Both the position numbers and the translations under genes were made by a program. The notes under the pieces were generated by a model that did not search any database, was not told the origin of the DNA, and saw only the letters and a list, made by a program, of their open reading frames with translations. DNA of 32,758 nt. Source: a virus. The stretch spans positions 1-32,758 of the IMG/VR virus record IMGVR_UViG_3300037672_001248. The stretch is one strand, 5' to 3'. Shown here one piece after another: positions 16,178 through 32,630 of this stretch (position 1 is its first letter; every line of letters begins with the position of its first letter).

Positions 16178-17359
16178 ATGATTGATCTAGAACACTTTCA
16201 TAACACGATACATAATTTACAATCCTCAGGACGTTATAGGATATTCAATGATATTGTTAGGCAAAAAGATAAATTTCCTGAAGCAATATGGTATGGTCCA
16301 TACGCTATTAAATCTGTAGTAAATTGGTGTAGTAATGATTATCTTGGCATGGGACAGAATAAAACTGTTATAGATGCTATGCACACTGCACTAGATCAAA
16401 CAGGCACTGGCAGTGGAGGTACAAGGAATATTGGAGGTACTAGCCATTATCATGTTGCACTAGAAAAACAGATTGCCTTGTTGCACAAAAAACCAGCAGG
16501 GCTTTTGTTTACGTCCGCATTTGTTGCAAATGAATGGACGCTAATCACCTTACCCAAGATCATTCCCAACCTAACATACCTCAGTGATAGCAAGAATCAT
16601 GCATCTCTTATTCAAGGGATAAGGCACAGTGGGGCTCCCAAACGTGTTTGGCAGCACAACGATATGGGTGATTTAGAATCGGCTTTAAAAGAAACATCAG
16701 GCACATCTTGCATTGTGTTTGAATCTGTGTATAGCATGGATGGGGATGTTTCTCCAATGGCTGACATTTGCGACTTAGCAAAAAAATATAATGCTGTTAC
16801 CTATATAGACGAAGTACATGCAGTTGGTCTTTACGGAGAAACAGGAGGAGGCAAGTTAGAAGAATATTCACTCTATGATAATGTAGACATTATTAATGGC
16901 ACCTTAGGGAAAGCGTTCGGCATGCAGGGAGGATATATCGCAGGTGATTCTATTGTGTTAGATTGCATAAGGAGTTTATCAAGTGGATTTATTTTCACAA
17001 CCAGCCTAAGTCCTGTGATCTGTGCAGGAGCTCTTGCAAGCATAAAATATGTTATGGATCATAATGAATTACGTAAGTGCCAACAACTTCAAGCAAAGAC
17101 TCTTAAAAATCATTTACAGGATTTAAATTTTGATATATTTCCTGCAGCTACAACCCATATTATTCCTTTGATGGTAGGCAATCCTACACACTGTAAGAAA
17201 ATAAGTGATGATCTGTTAAATGATCATAATATCTATGTGCAACCTATAAATGCACCCACGGTGCCAGTCGGCACAGAAAGATTACGGTTTACTCCAACTC
17301 CATTACACGATGACAGCCTTATCAATGAATTAATCAAAGCCCTACAGAAAGTTTTCTAG
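16178..17359 (+). CDS. hemA: 5-aminolevulinate synthase (ALAS, C4 pathway)
   Basis: A 393-aa PLP enzyme that condenses succinyl-CoA and glycine to 5-aminolevulinate, the first committed step of haem synthesis in alphaproteobacteria. Visible marks: '[11 protein letters not shown]' (50-60), '[15 protein letters not shown]' (78-92), '[13 protein letters not shown]' (136-148), '[10 protein letters not shown]' (181-190), '[12 protein letters not shown]' (209-220) with the PLP-contacting Asp/His, Schiff-base Lys245 in 'NGTLGKAFG', and 'FIFTTSLSP' (271-279). '[14 protein letters not shown]' near the C-terminus is typical of ALAS rather than of the KBL or BioF relatives. The length is nearly full for the family, so it should be active. 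Its stop overlaps the convergent secreted-protein gene by 4 nt. Confidence 0.93.
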
Positions 17360-19786: not shown

Positions 19787-21523
19787 ATGTGCATTTATAT
19801 TATCGACTTGGGTAGTCAATACACACATTTAATCAGCAAACGATTACGTATGTTAGGCTATAGATCTGAAATAATCGATCAAGATTTTACTGCATCATCT
19901 CTTAAGAATCCCAAAGGCCTTATTATAAGCGGAGGTCCTGGCACCAATTTATCAGGATTGACTGATAAAATATTTGCTACCCAACTACCAATATTAGGAA
20001 TATGCCTTGGCCATCAACTGATTTCTGCTCATTATGGAGGCGCAGTTGAAAAAAAGGCCAACACTGAATTCGGTAAGTCTAATTTGTCTCAAGTAAAAGA
20101 TAGTCCTCTATGGGAAGGAGTAAGACAAGGCAGTCAAATCTGGATGAGTCATTTTGACACTGTAACAAATATTCCACCAGATTTTGATATTATTGGCCAA
20201 ACCAACAACGGTGTAGTTGCTGCATTACAGCACACAAAAAAGTCTATCTATACTTTACAGTTTCATCCTGAAGTTTCGGATACACAGGACGGTTATCATA
20301 TATTGTTAAACTTTGCAAAAATTTGTAAGGCAAGACGAAATTGGAGTATGGATAATTTTTCTCTTGACACCATTGAAAAAATTAAAACACAGGTAGGTAC
20401 AAGAAAGGTATTGTTGTTTGTAAGTGGAGGTATAGATAGCACAGTTGCCTTTGAATTGTTAAACGCAAGTATCGGCCAGGATCGTGTGCTTGGCCTTTTC
20501 GTAGATAATGGATTTATGCGTAAAGGCGAAGGCGACCAAATCCGTGCTACATATGACAGCCTTGGTTATACAAATATAAAATACAGAGATTACAGTGCAG
20601 ATTTCTTATCAGCTATCCAAGGTTTAATAGATCCAGAACAGAAACGTAAATCAGTTGGTGAAACATTTCTCAAAGTGAGAGAAAAATTTATCAGTGAATT
20701 AGAATTGGATCCTGATGAATGGATGTTAGGACAGGGTACTCTGTATCCAGATATTATTGAATCAGGCGGCACACGAAACAGTAAGGTAATCAAATCACAT
20801 CATAATAGGGTGGCCGGTGTACAAGAATTTATCCGTAAGGGATTGGTTGTTGAACCGTTGAAAGAATTATATAAAGATGAAGCAAGGATCCTTGGCGATA
20901 AATTAGGGTTGCCAAAAGAAATAGTATATCGGCATCCTTTTCCTGGTCCAGGATTATCTATTAATGTTTTGTGCACAGATCAAAGGATACAAAAGAAATA
21001 TAAAACAAGATTGCCTGTTGACTCTGTAGGTGTACAAGGTGATATGCGAACTTACACTCAGCCAGTTGTTATTGAACTAGAAAAGGATTGGCAAAGTCTT
21101 GAAACTAAATCAATTGAAATTACAAACCAGTTAGCTGATGCCAACAGAGTAGTCACATATCTGCCTCCACAGGATCATCATGCCTTTCCTACTTGGCAAT
21201 CTCGTACTGCACACTGCACTCAAGAACGATTAGACCTATTACGAGAAGCAGATCATGTAATCACACAACTCTTAGAAAAACACAAATGGATGAAAAAGAT
21301 ATTCCAACACCTAACTATTTTATTACCTGTCAGCATAAATGGTGATAAGGATAGCGTTGTTATCCGTCCAGTATGTTCAAGAGATGTGATGACAGCAAAA
21401 TTTGCTAAGATAGATTGGCCTATTGTAGATGAGATTGTCAACCAATTGTACAATATTGAGGAAATAGACAGTGTGTTTTATGATATTACACACAAACCGC
21501 CAGGAACATTTGGTTGGGAATAA
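19787..21523 (+). CDS. guaA: GMP synthase (glutamine-hydrolysing), long type
   Basis: A 578-aa two-domain enzyme converting XMP to GMP with ATP and glutamine. Glutaminase domain: 'IIDLGSQYTHLI' (5-16), nucleophile Cys73 in 'GICLGHQL', His160/Glu162 in 'QFHPEVS'. ATP pyrophosphatase domain: P-loop 'VSGGIDSTVAFELL' (212-225), 'FVDNGFMRKGE', 'LGQGTLYPDIIESGG', 'SHHNRVAG', 'RHPFPGPGLSI'. The C-terminal dimerisation part has 'LPVDSVGVQGDMRTY', 'DSVVIRPVCSRDVMTA' and ends 'FYDITHKPPGTFGWE'. Usual bacterial GuaA is about 520 aa; the extra 50-60 residues lie between the PGPG loop and the C-terminus, somewhat like eukaryotic GMPS. All catalytic residues are present. It lies behind a structured leader. 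Confidence 0.95.
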   Translation: MCIYIIDLGSQYTHLISKRLRMLGYRSEIIDQDFTASSLKNPKGLIISGGPGTNLSGLTDKIFATQLPILGICLGHQLISAHYGGAVEKKANTEFGKSNLSQVKDSPLWEGVRQGSQIWMSHFDTVTNIPPDFDIIGQTNNGVVAALQHTKKSIYTLQFHPEVSDTQDGYHILLNFAKICKARRNWSMDNFSLDTIEKIKTQVGTRKVLLFVSGGIDSTVAFELLNASIGQDRVLGLFVDNGFMRKGEGDQIRATYDSLGYTNIKYRDYSADFLSAIQGLIDPEQKRKSVGETFLKVREKFISELELDPDEWMLGQGTLYPDIIESGGTRNSKVIKSHHNRVAGVQEFIRKGLVVEPLKELYKDEARILGDKLGLPKEIVYRHPFPGPGLSINVLCTDQRIQKKYKTRLPVDSVGVQGDMRTYTQPVVIELEKDWQSLETKSIEITNQLADANRVVTYLPPQDHHAFPTWQSRTAHCTQERLDLLREADHVITQLLEKHKWMKKIFQHLTILLPVSINGDKDSVVIRPVCSRDVMTAKFAKIDWPIVDEIVNQLYNIEEIDSVFYDITHKPPGTFGWE

Positions 21524-21944: not shown

Positions 21945-22439
21945 ATGATTGTACCACAAAAGAATTTTCGAGTAAGGATGGGTCCAGACTGGCATGATGC
22001 AACTACAGATGAATACTTCAAAGACAAGCGAGTTGTCGTAGTATCACTGCCAGGAGCATTCACTCCGGTATGCAGCAGTAAACAGTTACCTGCTTATGAA
22101 GCAGCTTACGATGAAATGGTATCACTTGGCATCAATGCAGTCTATTGTATGAGTGTCAACGATAGTTTCGTAATGAACGCTTGGGCTACAAATCTTGGTA
22201 TTGAAAAAGTAGAAATGATTCCAGATGGTGATGGTGTTTTTACACGTGGCATGAACATGCTGGTAGATAAACCATTCCAAGGGTTTGGCATGCGCAGCTG
22301 GCGTTATGCAATGGTAGTGAACAACAAAAAAGTAGAAAAGATGTTCGTTGAAGAAGGATTCAACAATCTAGGACTTGACGATGATCCCTACGTAGAAAGC
22401 ACTCCTGATAAGGTGCTGGAGTTTTTGAAGGTAGAATAG
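21945..22439 (+). CDS. Peroxiredoxin, Prx5 family
   Basis: A 164-aa protein with peroxidatic Cys43 in 'VSLPGAFTPVCSSKQLPAYE', the PxxxTxxC signature of peroxiredoxins in its Prx5 form. It continues with 'NAVYCMSVNDSFVMNAWATN', 'MIPDGDGVFTRGMNMLVD' and the arginine-bearing 'GFGMRSWRYAMVVNNKKVEK'. The length fits the family. Prx5 enzymes reduce peroxides and alkyl hydroperoxides using thioredoxin or glutaredoxin. SD ATAGGAGAAC precedes the ATG. In a phage it would protect the infected cell against oxidative stress (inference). Confidence 0.9.
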   Translation: MIVPQKNFRVRMGPDWHDATTDEYFKDKRVVVVSLPGAFTPVCSSKQLPAYEAAYDEMVSLGINAVYCMSVNDSFVMNAWATNLGIEKVEMIPDGDGVFTRGMNMLVDKPFQGFGMRSWRYAMVVNNKKVEKMFVEEGFNNLGLDDDPYVESTPDKVLEFLKVE

Positions 22440-22446
22440 ATTAAAT

Positions 22447-22530
22447 GCGGCTGTGGTGAAATTGGTAAACACACTGGACTTAAAATCCAGCGGCATAGCT
22501 GCTTTGCCGGTTCAATTCCGGCCAGCCGCA
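22447..22530 (+). tRNA. tRNA-Leu (UAA)
   Basis: GCGGCTG acceptor at 22447-22453 pairs with CAGCCGC at 22523-22529 with discriminator A. The anticodon stem CTGGA/TCCAG holds loop CTTAAAA with anticodon TAA at 22481-22483. The long variable arm (CGGCATAGCTGCTTTG region) and T-arm CCGG-TTCAATT-CCGG fit a class II leucine tRNA. CCA is not encoded. It reads UUA, a codon favoured in AT-rich genomes. Confidence 0.95.
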
Positions 22531-22545
22531 TTTGATATATACTGT

Positions 22546-25912: not shown

Positions 25913-25989
25913 GGACCTCTAGCTCAATAGGTTAGAGCAAACGACTCATAATCGTTAGGTTCTCGGTTCAAGTCCGAGGGGGTCCACCA
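25913..25989 (+). tRNA. tRNA with CAU anticodon (probably Ile2, otherwise Met)
   Basis: Acceptor GGACCTC (25913-25919) pairs with GGGGTCC, discriminator A and encoded CCA at 25987-25989. Anticodon stem ACGA/TCGT with loop CTCATAA; CAT at 25947-25949. T-arm CTCGG-TTCAAGT-CCGAG. The anticodon arm CGACTCATAATCG and the D-arm match bacterial tRNA-Ile2, whose C34 becomes lysidine to read AUA, better than elongator Met. Lysidine would be added by host TilS (inference). Confidence 0.9.
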
Positions 25990-27296: not shown

Positions 27297-27863
27297 GTGA
27301 ATTTTGCTATCTTAGCCAGTGGTGAAGGAACCACAGTAGAACATTTATTAAAGCAAAATTTAAAGAATGTGTATTGGTGCGGCGTCATCACAGATAATCC
27401 TCACAGTGGAGTTCAGCAACGTTGTCAATGCAACGTGATTGAAAAAGCAGAGAAAGAGTCAAAAAATTCACATGAGGCTAGGATTATCACTTGTTTACGC
27501 GATTGGAAAGTAGACATCATTATACTTGCAGGATACATGCGAATATTGAGTCCTTTTATCTTAAATCAATATCCTGCTATAAATGTTCACCCCTCCCTAT
27601 TACCTAAACACAAAGGCCGACATGCAGTAAGAGACACTCTTTCCAGTGGTGACAAAAATTCCGGTTGTACAATCCATTGGGTAGATCAAGGCATAGATAC
27701 AGGAAGCATTATTGCCCAGCATCTAGTTCCTATACAATCAAATGACACTGAATCTACATTGCGACAACGTATCCACAAGTATGAACTAATACTGTACCCT
27801 AAAATAGTAGAAAAAATCGCTAACAAAACATTATCGGTTGACAATCTTTCTAAATTATTATAA
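27297..27863 (+). CDS. purN: Phosphoribosylglycinamide formyltransferase (GART)
   Basis: A 188-aa enzyme transferring formyl from 10-formyl-THF to GAR in purine synthesis. It starts at GTG (27297). 'MNFAILASGEGTTVEHLL' is the phosphate loop (GSGTN in most members, here GEGTT). 'VDIIILAGYMRILSPFIL' leads into 'INVHPSLLPKHKGRHAVRD' with catalytic Asn96 and His98. 'SGCTIHWVDQGIDTGSIIAQ' carries His127 and Asp134. Near full length (about 190-210 in bacteria). With the GMP synthase it suggests phage control of guanine nucleotide supply. Confidence 0.93.
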   Translation: MNFAILASGEGTTVEHLLKQNLKNVYWCGVITDNPHSGVQQRCQCNVIEKAEKESKNSHEARIITCLRDWKVDIIILAGYMRILSPFILNQYPAINVHPSLLPKHKGRHAVRDTLSSGDKNSGCTIHWVDQGIDTGSIIAQHLVPIQSNDTESTLRQRIHKYELILYPKIVEKIANKTLSVDNLSKLL

Positions 27864-28698: not shown

Positions 28699-28788
28699 AA
28701 ACTCCGTCCAGGCCGAGGGAAGATCTCTAATGATATCAGTGAGTTAGGTCTAACCTATTGATATTACTGCGTATCATTTTGGTAGACA
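28699..28788. promoter_or_regulatory. Operator-like control block A (duplicated at about 32154-32244)
   Basis: It begins with ACTCCGTCCAGGCCGAGG, then the fourth TATCARTGASTTA element (28732-28744) within an imperfect inverted repeat TATCA...GTTAGgtCTAAC...TGATA, then CATTTTGGT just before the -35. The same order of elements recurs before the promoter at 32239. It probably binds a regulator of the adjacent promoter. Confidence 0.55.
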
Positions 28789-28811
28789 TCTCGACACAGA
28801 TTCGCTATACT
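28783..28811 (+). promoter_or_regulatory. Sigma70-type promoter TAGACA-N17-TATACT
   Basis: TAGACA 28783-28788, TATACT 28806-28811, spacer 17, followed by ATAAGAACAGTG like the other right-hand promoters. Drives the glycine-zipper gene. Its leader lacks the GNNCA hairpin and instead has AATAAATAC and AAGGAG. Confidence 0.75.
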
Positions 28812-28850
28812 ATAAGAACAGTGGCAATAAATACACGATAAGGAGATCCT

Positions 28851-29288
28851 ATGAAAAAGTTCATACTAGCCATCGCAGCCATAGCAACCGCAGCTCCTGC
28901 ACTTGCTCTTTCAATTGACAAGGGTGTCGTGCGTGATCACTATCGTGAGGTAGTGAGGGAAATACCTGAAACCCATCAAAGGTGCTACACCAAATCGGTC
29001 CCACAGCACAATGATTCATTCAACAAAGGTCGCGCAGTGATCGGAGGAATCATTGGCGGAGTGCTTGGTCACAATATCGGCGGAAAATCCAATCGACACG
29101 TAACGGCCTCATTCGGCACACTAGCTGGATCTGTGCTTGGTGGATCAGAACGTAAAACTACCTACCGACAGCAGAGGCACTGTGAGAATGTTACCCATTA
29201 CTCACAGGAGCGTGAAACCGTGTATAGCCACAGCACCGTTACCTTTAGAGAGAACGGCAAGACCTATACAGTAGAATTTCAAAAATAA
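28851..29288 (+). CDS. Glycine-zipper 2TM surface protein (17-kDa antigen-like)
   Basis: A 145-aa protein. 'MKKFILAIAAIATAAPALAL' is a Sec signal peptide. Residues about 60-98 hold 'RAVIGGIIGGVLGHNIGG' and 'TASFGTLAGSVLGGS', the glycine zipper of the Rickettsia 17-kDa antigen family, an outer-membrane-associated domain in proteobacteria. Two cysteines flank it ('QRCYTKS', 'QRHCENVT'). The C-terminus 'STVTFRENGKTYTVEFQK' is a beta hairpin. No lipobox Cys, so probably not a lipoprotein. In a phage it may alter the host envelope, perhaps in superinfection exclusion or lysis (inference). SD AAGGAGA. Confidence 0.8.
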   Translation: MKKFILAIAAIATAAPALALSIDKGVVRDHYREVVREIPETHQRCYTKSVPQHNDSFNKGRAVIGGIIGGVLGHNIGGKSNRHVTASFGTLAGSVLGGSERKTTYRQQRHCENVTHYSQERETVYSHSTVTFRENGKTYTVEFQK

Positions 29289-29301
29289 TTGAAAAAAATG
29301 G

Positions 29302-29383
29302 TTGACTTCTCCACAGGAGTCAACTATACTATAAAGACAGTGAGCAATTGCTCCATCCTTCCAACTCCAACAACGGAGACTCC
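29302..29383 (+). promoter_or_regulatory. Early promoter and double-hairpin leader (unit 1)
   Basis: TTGACT 29302-29307, TATACT 29325-29330, spacer 17. Leader: GAGC-AATT-GCTC (29342-29353), then CTCC (29365-29368) facing GGAG (29375-29378) across AACAAC. The GGAG is the ribosome site, 5 nt from the TTG start at 29384. Confidence 0.75.
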
Positions 29384-29515
29384 TTGCCAACAAAACCCTG
29401 CTGCGAATACGCAATAGACTCACATAACATTAACCTCAGCATCCCCTGCTTCTGCTACACTCCACCATGGATCATATCAGACGAGGAAGAAGAAGATGAA
29501 CTTGATCAAGAATGA
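29384..29515 (+). CDS. Small Cys-rich acidic-tailed protein (43 aa, TTG start)
   Basis: TTG at 29384, TGA at 29513-29515. The start is chosen because the GGAG-to-start spacing (5 nt) equals that of the other early leaders (4-6 nt). The product (M)PTKPCCEYAIDSHNINLSIP then CFCYTPPWIISDEEEEDEL has four cysteines and an acidic end. It overlaps the next gene by 20 nt. No family recognised; coding inferred mainly from the conserved leader. Confidence 0.5.
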   Translation: MPTKPCCEYAIDSHNINLSIPCFCYTPPWIISDEEEEDELDQE

Positions 29516-29684
29516 AATCCTAAACAAGCAGGATATTGAATTGAAAAAGAATGCCCAAGTCGTCGCTATTAAGAAGCTGGAAAAAATAATCGCTGAATGG
29601 GATGTTCAGCGACTAGGATTTGCAGGACTGCGTCGACATTGCCTCCGACTGGCAGAGTTGAATGGCCACTTCACAAACAAATAA
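29496..29684 (+). CDS. Hypothetical helical protein (62 aa)
   Basis: It starts MNLIKNEILNKQDIELKKNA and continues 'VVAIKKLEKIIAEWDVQRLG'; a basic, fully helical protein that could bind nucleic acid or partner protein. SD-like GAGGAAGAAGAAG precedes the ATG. Second gene of an early unit. Function unknown. Confidence 0.6.
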   Translation: MNLIKNEILNKQDIELKKNAQVVAIKKLEKIIAEWDVQRLGFAGLRRHCLRLAELNGHFTNK

Positions 29685-29698
29685 TATCAGTAGGGAAT

Positions 29699-29848
29699 AT
29701 GGAAGTTGAATTGACATTGAAAGTGACACTGGATGACGGTTATAGCCTAAGTGATTTATCAGCCATCCTGGATGAGATTACCTGGGATGTAGCACATGAA
29801 TCAATAGAATCAGCCGAATTAGTTGATGTAAACTGGGAGCTTGAATAA
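29699..29848 (+). CDS. Hypothetical small protein (49 aa)
   Basis: I start at the ATG at 29699 (SD AGTAGGG) instead of one at 29597, which lies inside the previous gene. 'MEVELTLKVTLDDGYSLSDL' then 'SAILDEITWDVAHESIESAE' makes a strand-helix-strand acidic protein. Its stop overlaps the next start (TAATG). No family recognised. Confidence 0.55.
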   Translation: MEVELTLKVTLDDGYSLSDLSAILDEITWDVAHESIESAELVDVNWELE

Positions 29849-30027
29849 TGACCTTTAGAGAAGCAGACCGACGCCTTACCGCAATCTTAAATCAGCGAGT
29901 AAATGAATGCACCGACAATGAAGACCTACAGAACAGTCATTCATATAAACTAGGTGTGCTAACAAGCATGATGTCTTGTGTCCTTACTGATGATCAACTG
30001 AAAAAATTCGAACAAGGAGTTATTTAA
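29848..30027 (+). CDS. Early small protein, paralogue of 30817-31020 (59 aa)
   Basis: ATG 29848, TAA 30025-30027. 'MTFREADRRLTAILNQRVNE' and 'SYKLGVLTSMMSCVLTDDQL' align with the protein at 30817-31020: xEAxxRLxxILxxR, then (S/A)YxLGxLxxxMxCxLTxxQ and a shared KxEQ. Both neighbours are joined by TAATG overlaps, so it lies in a coupled chain. Predicted all-helical; function unknown. Confidence 0.6.
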   Translation: MTFREADRRLTAILNQRVNECTDNEDLQNSHSYKLGVLTSMMSCVLTDDQLKKFEQGVI

Positions 30028-30230
30028 TGGATTTGATTACCATTTTAGAAAGTTGGTTCAACGGACAGCGCCGGCAAGCTCTAACCCAAGTCAAGGAGAT
30101 GGGATGGAACAATTTCGCCTATGCGATACAATTCGATGACGATCAACTCTGTCCTACCGAAAAAGTTGATATCCTTACCATGCTGATCAGGATGAATGAA
30201 GAATCAAAATTTTTAGCAAAAAATGGTTGA
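30027..30230 (+). CDS. Hypothetical protein (67 aa)
   Basis: It starts MDLITILESWFNGQRRQALT, continuing 'QVKEMGWNNFAYAIQFDDDQ' and 'LCPTEKVDILTMLIRM'. A helical protein coupled to the preceding gene by TAATG. The next promoter's -35 overlaps its stop codon, showing tight packing. No family recognised. Confidence 0.6.
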   Translation: MDLITILESWFNGQRRQALTQVKEMGWNNFAYAIQFDDDQLCPTEKVDILTMLIRMNEESKFLAKNG

Positions 30231-30311
30231 CTTTTGTACTGTGATCCAGTATACTATTAAAACAGTGAGCGAACAGCTTGCGTTTCCAAAAACTCCTCAA
30301 CAGGAGCACCG
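30227..30311 (+). promoter_or_regulatory. Early promoter and double-hairpin leader (unit 2)
   Basis: TTGACT 30227-30232, TATACT 30250-30255, spacer 17. Hairpin TGAGC-GAACA-GCTTG (30266-30280, two G-U pairs), then CTCC (30293-30296)/GGAG (30303-30306) across TCAACA, 5 nt from the ATG. 45 nt from the -10 onward are identical to the unit at 32262-32306. Confidence 0.8.
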
Positions 30312-30542
30312 ATGAACCCTTTCACAAAATCCTCGCATCCCTACTACATGGATCCGCACTTCATGGCCAAGCTCCCTAACTACAAGACAGCTTGGAGTCC
30401 AACCCACAGTCGCTACGTCGGCATCCGTGCCACATGGCGAGATCCTAACGGAGCGCCTGTAATTTCAGCCCATGTGCAAGGTGCTCCAGCAGATGAATTC
30501 ACCCTGTTCCGTGCAACCGAGTTGGTGAGGTACGTCCTATGA
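30312..30542 (+). CDS. Hypothetical protein (76 aa)
   Basis: It starts MNPFTKSSHPYYMDPHFMAK, with 'KTAWSPTHSRYVGIRATWRD' and 'VISAHVQGAPADEFTLFRAT'. Rich in His, Tyr and Pro, probably a small globular beta protein. First gene of its early unit; overlaps the next gene by 4 nt (ATGA). No family recognised. Confidence 0.6.
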   Translation: MNPFTKSSHPYYMDPHFMAKLPNYKTAWSPTHSRYVGIRATWRDPNGAPVISAHVQGAPADEFTLFRATELVRYVL

Positions 30543-30739
30543 GCATCATGCCTATCACAGCAGACACCGTGCAACATCACCTCGAGGCACTTTGGTATTC
30601 AGCCTACGGTGAAATGCCTCCTCCCAACAGCGATCCAGTGGAGATGATTTGCGAACTCACCGAGGATCGTGAACAAGGCTATGAGATCACTGAGATCATA
30701 AAATGGCTGCAAGGTGAACCACCAATAAAAAAAGGTTGA
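30539..30739 (+). CDS. Hypothetical protein (66 aa)
   Basis: It starts MSIMPITADTVQHHLEALWY then 'SAYGEMPPPNSDPVEMICEL' and 'YEITEIIKWLQGEPPIKKG'. Helical and acidic. The start overlaps the previous stop (ATGA). The next promoter's -35 begins inside its last codons. Function unknown. Confidence 0.58.
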   Translation: MSIMPITADTVQHHLEALWYSAYGEMPPPNSDPVEMICELTEDREQGYEITEIIKWLQGEPPIKKG

Positions 30740-30816
30740 CATTTTGGTCCGGTGATCATATACTATAATGACACTGGGCGTTCAGCCCATCCTGCCAACT
30801 CCAACCACGGAGACCA
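30736..30816 (+). promoter_or_regulatory. Early promoter and double-hairpin leader (unit 3)
   Basis: TTGACA 30736-30741, TATACT 30759-30764, spacer 17. Hairpin TGGGC-GTTCA-GCCCA (30775-30789, five Watson-Crick pairs), then CTCC (30799-30802)/GGAG (30809-30812) across AACCAC, 4 nt from the ATG. Confidence 0.82.
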
Positions 30817-31020
30817 ATGAACTGGATCGAAGCCACCGAAAGGCTTGAATACATATTGGCCAGCCGCATCAAGCGCCTAGCAATCAGAGATGAACAGAAA
30901 GCCAGCAAGGCTTACCAGCTAGGATCACTACTAGGCCTAATGGGCTGTACCCTCACTGAAGCACAGATTGAAAAACTAGAACAAGAAGAAAACATCATCC
31001 CAGGAGTGACATGTCCATGA
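30817..31020 (+). CDS. Early small protein, paralogue of 29848-30027 (67 aa)
   Basis: 'MNWIEATERLEYILASRIKR' then 'KAYQLGSLLGLMGCTLTEAQ' and 'IEKLEQEENIIPGVTCP'. The alignment with the 59-aa protein spans nearly its whole length. Helical, with one conserved Cys in MxCxLT. It overlaps the next gene by 10 nt. Function unknown; the duplication suggests selection for dosage or divergence. Confidence 0.6.
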   Translation: MNWIEATERLEYILASRIKRLAIRDEQKASKAYQLGSLLGLMGCTLTEAQIEKLEQEENIIPGVTCP

Positions 31021-31322
31021 AAAACATTATCTACACCCTGATATCAGATCCTGGCCACGGATGGCTGCAAGTGCCACGTGACCATATACATGAGGTAGGC
31101 CTAGGCGCTGGTGACTTTTCAACCTACTCCTACTTGGACATGGACCACTTCTACCTCGAAGAGGACATGGACATCGCAATCTTCTCAAAGGCCTATGCCA
31201 ACACGTTCGGCTCACAACCAACCATCACCTTGAAGAACTGTAAGTCAAAGAGCGGCATCCGACAGAAGAGCACCAACTATGCCGGTGAAAAAGATTTTGC
31301 CGTGCTCTGCTCACGCATGTAG
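31011..31322 (+). CDS. Conserved hypothetical protein, 'SDPGHGW' type (103 aa)
   Basis: 'MSMKNIIYTLISDPGHGWLQ' then 'VPRDHIHEVGLGAGDFSTYS' and 'YLEEDMDIAIFSKAYANTFG', ending with a basic 'KSKSGIRQKSTNYAGEKDF'. The 'SDPGHGWxxVP...FSxYSYxxxxxxYLEEDxDxxxF' layout recurs in small proteins of phages and plasmids as I remember it, without known function. A second Met (codon 3) is an alternative start. Translation is coupled to the previous gene. Confidence 0.65.
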   Translation: MSMKNIIYTLISDPGHGWLQVPRDHIHEVGLGAGDFSTYSYLDMDHFYLEEDMDIAIFSKAYANTFGSQPTITLKNCKSKSGIRQKSTNYAGEKDFAVLCSRM

Positions 31323-31329
31323 AAAAAGG

Positions 31330-31397
31330 TTGACATTCGACACAGGATCACGTATACTATAAAAACAGTAGGCGATCCACTCACACCAGGAGACACC
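31330..31397 (+). promoter_or_regulatory. Early promoter and leader (unit 4, degenerate hairpins)
   Basis: TTGACA 31330-31335, TATACT 31353-31358, spacer 17, then AAAAACAGTAGGCGATCCAC. The first hairpin is weak (GG/CC with a bulge) and the second is reduced to CTC (31380-31382)/GAG (31390-31392), so the leader is a divergent member of the set. Confidence 0.7.
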
Positions 31398-31961
31398 ATG
31401 TTCACAGGTAGAGCTATCACATTCAAAGAGAAACTGAGGCTGGCGGACGCGGCCCCCACACTAACCAGGCTTGGGTCTGGATCAGCCAGGGTGGTCTTTG
31501 GAGTTGATCTCACCACGGGCACTAGGCGAGGTCCTAGCGTGATGAAGATCGCCAAGAACACCAAGGGCCTCAGGCAGAACCTAGCAGAGGCCCAACTTTA
31601 CGTGAAATACGATTTCTACCCTCCATACATGACCCCCATGATATCCTGGGATGACAATGATGACTGTGACACTGCTTGGATCTCCGTTATGAAAGCAGGT
31701 GCCTACTCTGAAACTGCATTCTGGAATCACTTTGGGGTCCCCTTTAAAACATTTTCAGACTGCCTCAGCGAACACATCAACCACGGTCGGATGAATCCTC
31801 GTGTCACAACCCAAGCGATCAGAGATTTCGTCCAGTGGGTTGAGGATAACGATCTCATGCTAGGGGAGTTCCGACAGGGTTCGAACTGGGGCACTTACAA
31901 CGGCATGCCTGTGATACTTGATGCAGGCCTTACCCATGCCAACTACGCAATCGCTGTCTAA
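31398..31961 (+). CDS. Protein-kinase-like mini-protein, possibly catalytically altered
   Basis: A 187-aa protein. 'TRLGSGSARVVFGVDL' (23-38) looks like the kinase glycine loop, 'SVMKIAKN' (47-54) like the ATP-binding lysine strand, and Glu64 in 'NLAEAQLYVKY' like the alpha-C glutamate. Near the C-terminus 'NDLMLGEFRQGSNWG' precedes 'MPVILDAGLT' (171-180): compare kinase-like 'gDlhxxNwG...pVviDyG'. Asn163 and Asp175 are kept, but the expected catalytic Asp is Glu157 and His is Arg. It is much shorter than full kinases. It could act on host proteins, as T7 gp0.7 does, or be a pseudokinase. Assignment is by motif only. Confidence 0.55.
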   Translation: MFTGRAITFKEKLRLADAAPTLTRLGSGSARVVFGVDLTTGTRRGPSVMKIAKNTKGLRQNLAEAQLYVKYDFYPPYMTPMISWDDNDDCDTAWISVMKAGAYSETAFWNHFGVPFKTFSDCLSEHINHGRMNPRVTTQAIRDFVQWVEDNDLMLGEFRQGSNWGTYNGMPVILDAGLTHANYAIAV

Positions 31962-31972
31962 TCAGGAGCCAC

Positions 31973-32152
31973 ATGCCGACTGAAACAATCAACGTAGATC
32001 AAATAATCGAACAGATCGTGGACACGCTCTGCGAAGCTGATGTTTCATTCGTATGCGAGATCGCCAACAAGGTCCTACATGCCGGACATCAGCCCTCAGG
32101 TGAGGATGAGGCCGGCTATGACCTAATCGAGCAGACCTGGCTAGAAGCGTGA
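31973..32152 (+). CDS. Hypothetical acidic protein (59 aa)
   Basis: ATG 31973 with SD AGGAG; TGA 32150-32152. 'MPTETINVDQIIEQIVDTLC' then 'EADVSFVCEIANKVLHAGHQ' and 'GYDLIEQTWLEA'. Helical and acidic, 11 nt after the kinase-like gene and likely co-transcribed. No family recognised. Confidence 0.55.
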   Translation: MPTETINVDQIIEQIVDTLCEADVSFVCEIANKVLHAGHQPSGEDEAGYDLIEQTWLEA

Positions 32153-32153
32153 G

Positions 32154-32244
32154 AAAACTCCGCCCAGGCCGAGGAAAGATCCTCTGTTTTATCAGTGACA
32201 TACGCATAAGTCACTGATATTGCTGGTGTTCATTTTGGTTGTGT
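32154..32244. promoter_or_regulatory. Operator-like control block B with 10-bp inverted repeat
   Basis: It begins with ACTCCGCCCAGGCCGAGG (as in block A), then TATCAGTGAC and GTCACTGATA separated by 10 nt (32190-32219), then TTCATTTTGGTT. Both arms belong to the TATCARTGASTTA family. It ends at the -35 of the next promoter. Confidence 0.6.
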
Positions 32245-32321
32245 TTTATCCTTAGATCTCATATACTATTAAAACAGTGAGCGAACAGCTTGCGTTTCCA
32301 AAAACTGCACACGGAGCAGAT
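32239..32321 (+). promoter_or_regulatory. Early promoter and double-hairpin leader (unit 5)
   Basis: TTGTGT 32239-32244 (weak -35), TATACT 32262-32267, spacer 17. Hairpin TGAGC-GAACA-GCTTG (32278-32292) as in unit 2, then CTGC (32305-32308) with GCAG (32316-32319), enclosing ACACGGA. The SD GGAG (32313-32316) sits partly in the loop. The ATG follows 5 nt later. Confidence 0.75.
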
Positions 32322-32537
32322 ATGAAATTAGCCAAACCAGCAAAGTTCTACAGCCGAGCACAGATGACATTCCGCCCTAAAGCAGAGAAGCGCAGTCGCA
32401 ACCTGGATGCGGACATCCGTGCCGAGCAGGTAGGATTTGCAGAGGGCAGGAGTAGTGCAGAGCAGATGCCTCGTGCAACGATTCGAGTGCGCAAGGTAGA
32501 GATGATCAACGGTCGCAAGTTTTACTGCATCTCATAA
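32322..32537 (+). CDS. Hypothetical basic protein (71 aa)
   Basis: I start at the ATG at 32322 because an in-frame GTG at 32277 lies inside the leader hairpin. 'MKLAKPAKFYSRAQMTFRPK' is basic, followed by 'AEKRSRNLDADIRAEQVGFA' and a beta hairpin 'ATIRVRKVEMINGRKFYCI'. A DNA- or RNA-binding role would fit the charge but is not shown. Confidence 0.58.
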   Translation: MKLAKPAKFYSRAQMTFRPKAEKRSRNLDADIRAEQVGFAEGRSSAEQMPRATIRVRKVEMINGRKFYCIS

Positions 32538-32545
32538 AAAAACAG

Positions 32546-32630
32546 TTGACACGCTAGCCAGGATCTAGTATACTATAAGAACAGTGGGCGACCAGCCCAC
32601 TCCTTCCCCAACTCCACACAGGAGCACGCC
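32546..32630 (+). promoter_or_regulatory. Early promoter and double-hairpin leader (unit 6)
   Basis: TTGACA 32546-32551, TATACT 32569-32574, spacer 17. Hairpin GTGGGC-GACCA-GCCCAC (32584-32600, six pairs), then CTCC (32612-32615)/GGAG (32621-32624) across ACACA, 6 nt from the ATG. Confidence 0.82.

What the first reader, a model, noticed from the sequence alone, without database searches (positions are those of the whole stretch)
31398..31961. Mini kinase-like early protein with a changed catalytic motif
Glycine loop, ATP-lysine strand, alpha-C Glu, and Asn/Asp near the C-terminus fit a reduced protein-kinase fold in 187 residues, but the expected catalytic Asp is Glu157 and the preceding motif reads GEFRQGSNWG. 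It may be an active atypical kinase, an AMPylase-like enzyme, or a pseudokinase that binds host proteins. Early promoter placement fits host takeover.
Basis: partly seen in the sequence, partly recalled or inferred. Interest (0 to 1): 0.6.

Follow-up and report, generated by a model that had tools for sequence, protein, structure and literature searches.

The report
Cut-down kinase-like phage protein
A virus of bacteria makes, from its own host-type promoter, a small protein shaped like the ATP-binding half of a protein kinase, and it belongs to a widespread but unnamed phage family whose other members appear to be packed into the virus head, so it is probably a tool for taking over the host cell.

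Summary
Window 31398-31961 (+) encodes 187 residues. They fold, with high confidence (pLDDT 91.5), as a protein kinase cut off just after the DFG-like motif; every PDB row shown was a kinase or kinase-like enzyme. It belongs to phrog_4301 (E 6e-14, "unknown function"), for which I found about 80 viral and 9 bacterial loci. Kinase residues G28, K50, E64, D175, G177 are invariant in 80/80 sequences. The catalytic-base position is Asp in 76/76 others and Glu only here and in three relatives, one clade (support 100/100). So Glu157 is a real, inherited change in an otherwise intact ATP site, not decay. New points: (1) most relatives begin with a T4-like capsid-targeting N-terminus (43 of 67 versus 0.5 expected), often fused to acetyltransferase or deaminase domains, suggesting virion-injected effectors; (2) the window protein lacks that N-terminus and sits behind one of seven near-identical sigma-70-type promoters (0.26 expected). 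Best reading: an early host-takeover effector that binds ATP and probably transfers phosphate; a pseudokinase is a close rival. The AMPylase idea has no support. No sequence profile links it significantly to a named kinase family. Activity, substrate and packaging are untested.

The parts
31330..31362 (+). Sigma-70-type promoter TTGACA-N17-TATACT(ATAA) directly upstream
   Evidence: One of 7 sites within 2 mismatches of TTGAC-N18-TATACTATAA; 0.26 expected in shuffles; 11/12 matches to consensus
31388..31392 (+). Shine-Dalgarno AGGAG, 5 nt before the ATG
   Evidence: Read directly in the sequence
31398..31961 (+). Reduced kinase-fold protein, 187 aa, phrog_4301 member
   Evidence: phrog_4301 E 6.1e-14; AlphaFold2 pLDDT 91.5, pTM 0.86; PDB Foldseek matches are kinases
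31473..31490 (+). Glycine loop G26-S-G-S-A-R31
   Evidence: G28 and R31 in 80/80, S29 in 79/80 sequences; between strands 22-27 and 31-38 of the model
31545..31547 (+). Lys50, beta-3 (VAIK) lysine equivalent
   Evidence: 80/80 invariant; in strand 45-52
31587..31589 (+). Glu64, alpha-C glutamate equivalent
   Evidence: 80/80 invariant; in helix 55-70
31866..31868 (+). Glu157 at the catalytic-Asp (HRD Asp) position
   Evidence: Asp in 76/76 relatives outside the clade, Glu in 4/4 inside; 18 residues before D175
31884..31886 (+). Asn163, probable metal-binding Asn of the catalytic loop, at +6 instead of +5
   Evidence: N in 60, S in 15, T in 4, Q in 1 of 80
31920..31928 (+). D175-A-G177, DFG-like metal-binding motif; the protein ends 10 residues later
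   Evidence: 80/80 invariant D and G; structural alignments end in register with the DFG Asp of BTK, LCK, CDK6, ABL and TTK
28783..32578 (+). Promoter island: sites at 28783, 29302, 30227, 30736, 31330 and 32546
   Evidence: GC rises from about 37% to 50% here

Best explanation
It is a phage host-takeover effector with a protein-kinase fold reduced to the N-lobe, hinge, alpha-D/E helices, catalytic loop and DFG-like turn, without activation segment or the rest of the C-lobe. Shown: the ORF, family membership, conserved ATP-site residues, a confident kinase-like model, the clade-wide Asp-to-Glu change, and a sigma-70-type promoter. Inferred: it is made early by host RNA polymerase, binds Mg-ATP through the Gly loop, K50-E64, N163 and D175, and transfers phosphate to a host (or phage) protein, with Glu157 standing in for the catalytic Asp. 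Relatives seem to deliver the same domain inside the virion through a T4-like capsid-targeting N-terminus; here that tail is missing and early transcription would replace it.
For: Model pLDDT 91.5, pTM 0.86. Foldseek: 305 PDB matches at E<=1e-3, all 50 rows shown kinases. VIA Z 8.7 to APH(2'')-IVa (rmsd 4.2, 141 aligned) and 8.3 to Rio2. A 159-aa bacterial relative models at pLDDT 95.5 with Z 10.4 to PLK4 and 9.1 to PRPK. K50, E64, D175, G177 invariant in 80; Glu157 only in one 100/100 clade that keeps every other ATP-site residue and the motif GE[FY]RQ[GK]SNWG at 44-53% overall identity. Promoter. CTS-like N-termini in relatives; GNAT and deaminase fusions. Kinases without an activation loop can be active: PRPK and Rio2 autophosphorylate (PMC7864929). 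Early phage kinases acting on host defence are known: JSS1_004 (PMC12345140).
Against: Pfam, NCBIfam and PADLOC give no match for the window protein. Profile comparisons with T7 gp0.7, YrbL, SrkA and Kinase-PolyVal are not significant, so homology to any named kinase family is not shown by sequence. TM-scores to full kinases are modest (0.35-0.46, normalised by the query). The HRD histidine is absent and the Asn sits at +6. Asp-to-Glu at the catalytic base could abolish transfer. No substrate is known.
Confidence: 0.45

Rival explanations
1. Pseudokinase: the clade lost phosphotransfer when Asp became Glu, but kept ATP and metal binding as a structural switch. The protein works by binding a host protein, not by modifying it.
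For: The base position differs in all four clade members against Asp in 76/76 others. The substrate-binding half of the C-lobe is missing. [quoted passage not shown] The clade sits on a long branch (1.21).
Against: Every other ATP-site residue and the whole loop GE[FY]RQ[GK]SNWG stay fixed while overall identity falls to 44-53%, which is not the drift expected of a dead site. The change is chemically conservative.
Confidence: 0.35
2. Kinase fold used on a small molecule or nucleic acid (APH-like, as in aminoglycoside or methylthioribose kinases), for example an antibiotic, a nucleotide signal or DNA.
For: Best VIA match of the window model is APH(2'')-IVa (Z 8.7, tied with protein kinases). 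Weak APH_6_hur matches in 6 of 67 relatives, best E 0.027.
Against: The C-lobe that forms the APH substrate pocket is missing. The relatives' fusions (GNAT, deaminase) and CTS-like tails suggest macromolecular host targets.
Confidence: 0.1
3. AMPylase-like (SelO-like) enzyme: ATP bound in a flipped pose and AMP transferred to host proteins.
For: Only that the fold is kinase-like and the catalytic Asp is altered; SelO is a precedent for a kinase fold with changed chemistry (own knowledge).
Against: D-type relatives carry the canonical K/E/D/D pattern of phosphotransferases. No SelO entry appeared among the listed structures, which by itself does not exclude it.
Confidence: 0.05
4. Not a kinase-related protein: the fold resemblance is a common alpha/beta arrangement and the motifs serve something else.
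For: No sequence profile reaches significance against a kinase family. Z around 8 can be background (tool note).
Against: Two confident models of proteins about 22% identical both retrieve only kinases and kinase-like phosphotransferases in the rows shown, and the independently conserved residues fall at Gly loop, beta-3 Lys, alpha-C Glu, catalytic Asp and DFG Asp.
Confidence: 0.05

Closest known systems
phrog_4301 (PHROGs, unknown function)
   Same: Direct sequence relatives (E 6.1e-14), e.g. XacN1 ORF170 and Alishewanella phages Slicko01/Slickus01
   Different: The window clade has Glu at the base position, and the window protein lacks the N-terminal tail (LLEAPLPDDWD type) seen in others
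Kinase-PolyVal (Pfam PF18762; Iyer et al. 2017, PMC5512222)
   Same: Phage/mobile-element kinase domain that lost the C-terminal subdomain, in multidomain injected effectors, with stand-alone versions
   Different: Not among the profile matches listed for 67 relatives; profile comparison E 0.09; different motifs (EDLHDENV versus GDLxRxxNWG)
T7 gp0.7 Ser/Thr kinase and JSS1_004
   Same: Early phage kinase acting on host proteins; catalytic Asp 18 residues before the metal-binding Asp in both
   Different: Larger proteins with a shut-off domain behind the kinase domain; profile comparison not significant
PRPK/Bud32 and Rio2
   Same: Active small kinases without activation loop (PMC7864929); structural matches Z 9.1 (PRPK, bacterial relative) and 8.3 (Rio2, window model)
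   Different: They retain helix alpha-F and more of the C-lobe; canonical catalytic Asp; cellular role
T4 internal proteins IPII/IPIII (capsid targeting sequence)
   Same: Relatives L007 and L106 begin MKTFNQFLIE / MKSFSRFLTE, like T4 MKTYQEFIAE
   Different: The window protein has no such N-terminus

Membership tests
phrog_4301 | Significant match to the family profile over most of the domain | tested here: met
   E 6.1e-14, residues 19-183; 4 phage records by tblastn
Protein kinase-like superfamily | Kinase N-lobe with Gly loop, beta-3 Lys and alpha-C Glu | tested here: met
   Conserved G28, K50, E64 at the matching elements of a pLDDT 91.5 model
Protein kinase-like superfamily | Fold match to solved kinases | tested here: met
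   305 Foldseek matches at E<=1e-3, kinases in all rows shown; Z to 8.7, 10.4 for a bacterial relative
Protein kinase-like superfamily | Catalytic Asp (HRD/HGD) | tested here: not met
   Glu157 in the window and 3 relatives; Asp in 76/76 others
Protein kinase-like superfamily | DFG-type metal-binding Asp | tested here: met
   D175-x-G177 80/80; alignments end in register with the DFG Asp of five kinases (kinase numbering from own knowledge)
Protein kinase-like superfamily | Activation segment, APE motif, helices F-I | tested here: not met
   Protein ends 10 residues after D175-A-G177
Protein kinase-like superfamily | Significant sequence-profile match to a kinase family | tested here: not met
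   No Pfam hit for the window protein at E<=10; hhalign E 0.085-0.36
Protein kinase-like superfamily | Phosphotransfer activity | not testable with these tools
   Needs an in vitro assay
Kinase-PolyVal (PF18762) | Match to the Pfam profile | tested here: not met
   Window protein: no Pfam family at E<=10. Not among the 25 families listed for 67 relatives (8 single-member families were not shown). hhalign E 0.092
Kinase-PolyVal (PF18762) | Loss of the C-terminal kinase subdomain | tested here: met
   description in PMC5512222
T7 gp0.7 kinases | Profile similarity over the kinase domain | tested here: not met
   hhalign E 0.085 and 0.19, local only
Bud32/PRPK and RIO kinases | Family-level homology | tested here: inconclusive
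   Structural matches, tied with other kinases
SelO AMPylases | SelO fold and flipped ATP site | tested here: inconclusive
   Not listed among structural rows, which does not exclude it
T4-type capsid-targeted internal proteins | N-terminal capsid targeting sequence | tested here: not met
   0 of 71 window ORFs carry the motif; 43 of 67 unique relatives' N-termini do

The most novel reading that the evidence does not exclude
A widespread, unannotated family of minimal kinases is carried inside the heads of T4-like and jumbo phages and injected with the DNA, often fused to acetyltransferases or deaminases. One clade replaced the catalytic Asp by Glu yet stays catalytic, and in this phage the enzyme has switched from virion delivery to early transcription.
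Probability: 0.25. Interest if true: 0.8.

Novelty: new variant of a known kind. Interest (0 to 1): 0.5.

Why it matters
phrog_4301 has no function assigned. If it is a family of injected minimal kinases, dozens of unannotated phage proteins gain a testable role in host takeover or counter-defence. The Glu clade is a natural test of whether a kinase can work without its catalytic Asp, and the bacterial members of about 155 residues would be among the smallest kinase-fold proteins (own knowledge).

Tried and rejected
Close DNA relatives: no match in 50,697 phage records in near or distant mode. A single-sequence search of viral contigs found nothing; the alignment query was needed. Profile search of PDB sequences gave one chance-level kinase hit with 5 sequences and none with 67. 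hhalign to T7 gp0.7, YrbL, SrkA and Kinase-PolyVal was not significant, though several local alignments fell on the Gly loop and beta-3 Lys; RapZ as a control scored similarly low elsewhere. A first, strict CTS pattern that required one more hydrophobic residue missed MRANEFITE-type N-termini (8 of 67) and was replaced by a looser one checked on T4 and E. coli; the looser pattern was chosen after seeing the sequences. XacN1 virion proteomics: the main text does not mention ORF170 and the figure is not held, so packaging stays untested. SelO did not appear among the structural rows shown. An upstream start that would restore a capsid-targeting tail: none; the frame upstream overlaps the promoter and has no start codon.

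Full report
What is there. Window 31398-31961 (+) is a 187-codon ORF with a good ribosome site (AGGAG, 31388-31392) and a sigma-70-type promoter at 31330-31362. The frame upstream is open but has no earlier start codon. Near-identical promoters (TTGAC-N18-TATACTATAA, up to 2 mismatches) occur 7 times in the window against 0.26 expected, six of them on the + strand between 28783 and 32578. That is what an early region read by host RNA polymerase looks like, but the timing is inferred. The phage is a marine T4-like myovirus by inference: its peroxiredoxin is closest to Pelagibacter phage HTVC008M and cyanophages, and it has tail-fibre genes.

Family. The protein matches phrog_4301 (unknown function, E 6.1e-14) and four phage records at 24-33% identity. 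An alignment query found 80 loci in IMG/VR, a third scan added L106, and nine bacterial loci were found. Across 80 aligned sequences G28, R31, K50, E64, G165, D175 and G177 never vary.

Fold. AlphaFold2 on 67 sequences gave pLDDT 91.5, pTM 0.86: five N-lobe strands with one helix, then helices, a short catalytic-loop helix, two strands, DAG and a last short helix. Foldseek found 305 PDB chains at E<=1e-3, and the 50 rows shown are all kinases. VIA gave Z 8.7 to APH(2'')-IVa, 8.5 to ACVR1 and 8.3 to Rio2. These Z values alone are near background for odd models, so I modelled a 159-residue bacterial relative separately (pLDDT 95.5): Z 10.4 to PLK4 and 9.1 to PRPK; the 50 rows shown are kinases or kinase-like phosphotransferases. 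The VIA end-points put D175 in register with the DFG Asp of BTK (181 with 545), LCK (179 with 386), CDK6 (179 with 167), ABL (181 with 387) and TTK (179 with 668), using kinase numbering from my own knowledge. Glu157 is 18 residues earlier, the usual distance of the catalytic Asp. Sequence profiles do not reach significance against any kinase family tried, so the kinase assignment rests on structure prediction plus conserved positions.

The Glu. Position 157 is Asp in 76/76 sequences and Glu in the window, L006, L007 and L106. These four form one branch with 100/100 support and length 1.21. All keep the rest of the ATP site and the loop GE[FY]RQ[GK]SNWG at 44-53% overall identity. Arg59, at the start of alpha-C, is also fixed in the clade and found in 2/76 others. 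A single old, conservative and well-kept change does not look like decay. It may still have removed catalysis: the HRD Asp is needed for efficient transfer but not for ATP binding (PMC4718504).

Delivery. In relatives the domain often has an N-terminus like the T4 capsid targeting sequence: 43 of 67 unique N-termini match a pattern that shuffling gives 0.54 times, that picks only IPII and IPIII among the 43 ORFs of two T4 segments, and none in two E. coli segments. 76 of 642 other ORFs in the same loci match too, as expected if the loci hold several cargo genes. In L007 and L106 several neighbouring ORFs start this way: MKTFNQFLIE and MKKFKEFISE; MKTYKDFVLE, MKSFSRFLTE and MKSFSQFLTE. T4 internal proteins use this sequence to enter the head, and IPI is injected to counter a host restriction enzyme (PMC3012670). 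32 of 80 relatives are 300 residues or longer by their longest ATG-started frame; of 20 scanned, 7 carry an acetyltransferase domain above the Pfam cut-off and one a deaminase. The window protein starts where the domain starts, and none of 71 window ORFs has the motif. So the same domain seems to arrive in the virion in relatives and to be made at once in this phage. Packaging itself was not tested; the XacN1 proteomics text does not mention ORF170.

Comparison. Iyer et al. 2017 (PMC5512222) describe kinases in injected polyvalent proteins that lost the C-terminal subdomain (Pfam Kinase-PolyVal). The present family may work like them but did not match that profile and has other motifs. PRPK and Rio2 show that kinases without an activation loop can be active (PMC7864929). 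JSS1_004 shows an early phage kinase disabling a host defence (PMC12345140).

Verdict. Observation confirmed; interpretation partly supported. Best reading: an early ATP-binding effector, somewhat more likely an active kinase using Glu than a pseudokinase. New variant of a known kind.

Noticed in passing
L087-L094 (bacterial contigs), e.g. L091:3932-4411: Stand-alone relatives of about 155 residues in Bacillota chromosomes (Anaerocolumna, Herbinix, [Clostridium] fimetarium), in differing ordinary gene neighbourhoods, all with Asp; one modelled as a kinase fold at pLDDT 95.5. Function unknown.
   Followed up: partly
L007:2084-6540, L106:129-6056, L006:47-4310: Cassettes next to the Glu-type relatives: a roughly 755-805-residue protein (GP88 domain, PF17338, in L007), a 390-residue ORF in L007 whose relative is fused to the kinase domain in L006, and several small ORFs with capsid-targeting-like starts.
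   Followed up: partly
window 29001-32000: GC content rises from about 37% to 50% over the promoter island that holds the finding, unlike the rest of the window.
   Followed up: no
window 16178-17359, 19787-21523, 21945-22439, 27297-27863: Host-like metabolic genes: a probable 5-aminolevulinate synthase-type aminotransferase (read from sequence), a GMP synthase-like protein, a peroxiredoxin (PF08534) and a formyltransferase resembling PurN (PF00551).
   Followed up: partly
window 22446-22531 and 25913-25989: tRNA-Leu (taa) and tRNA-Met (cat) genes.
   Followed up: no
L028:5506-6609; L017, L018, L023, L030, L040, L048, L067: Kinase-like domain fused to a dCMP/cytidine deaminase domain (L028) and to GNAT acetyltransferases (the others), a domain mix typical of injected effectors.
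   Followed up: partly
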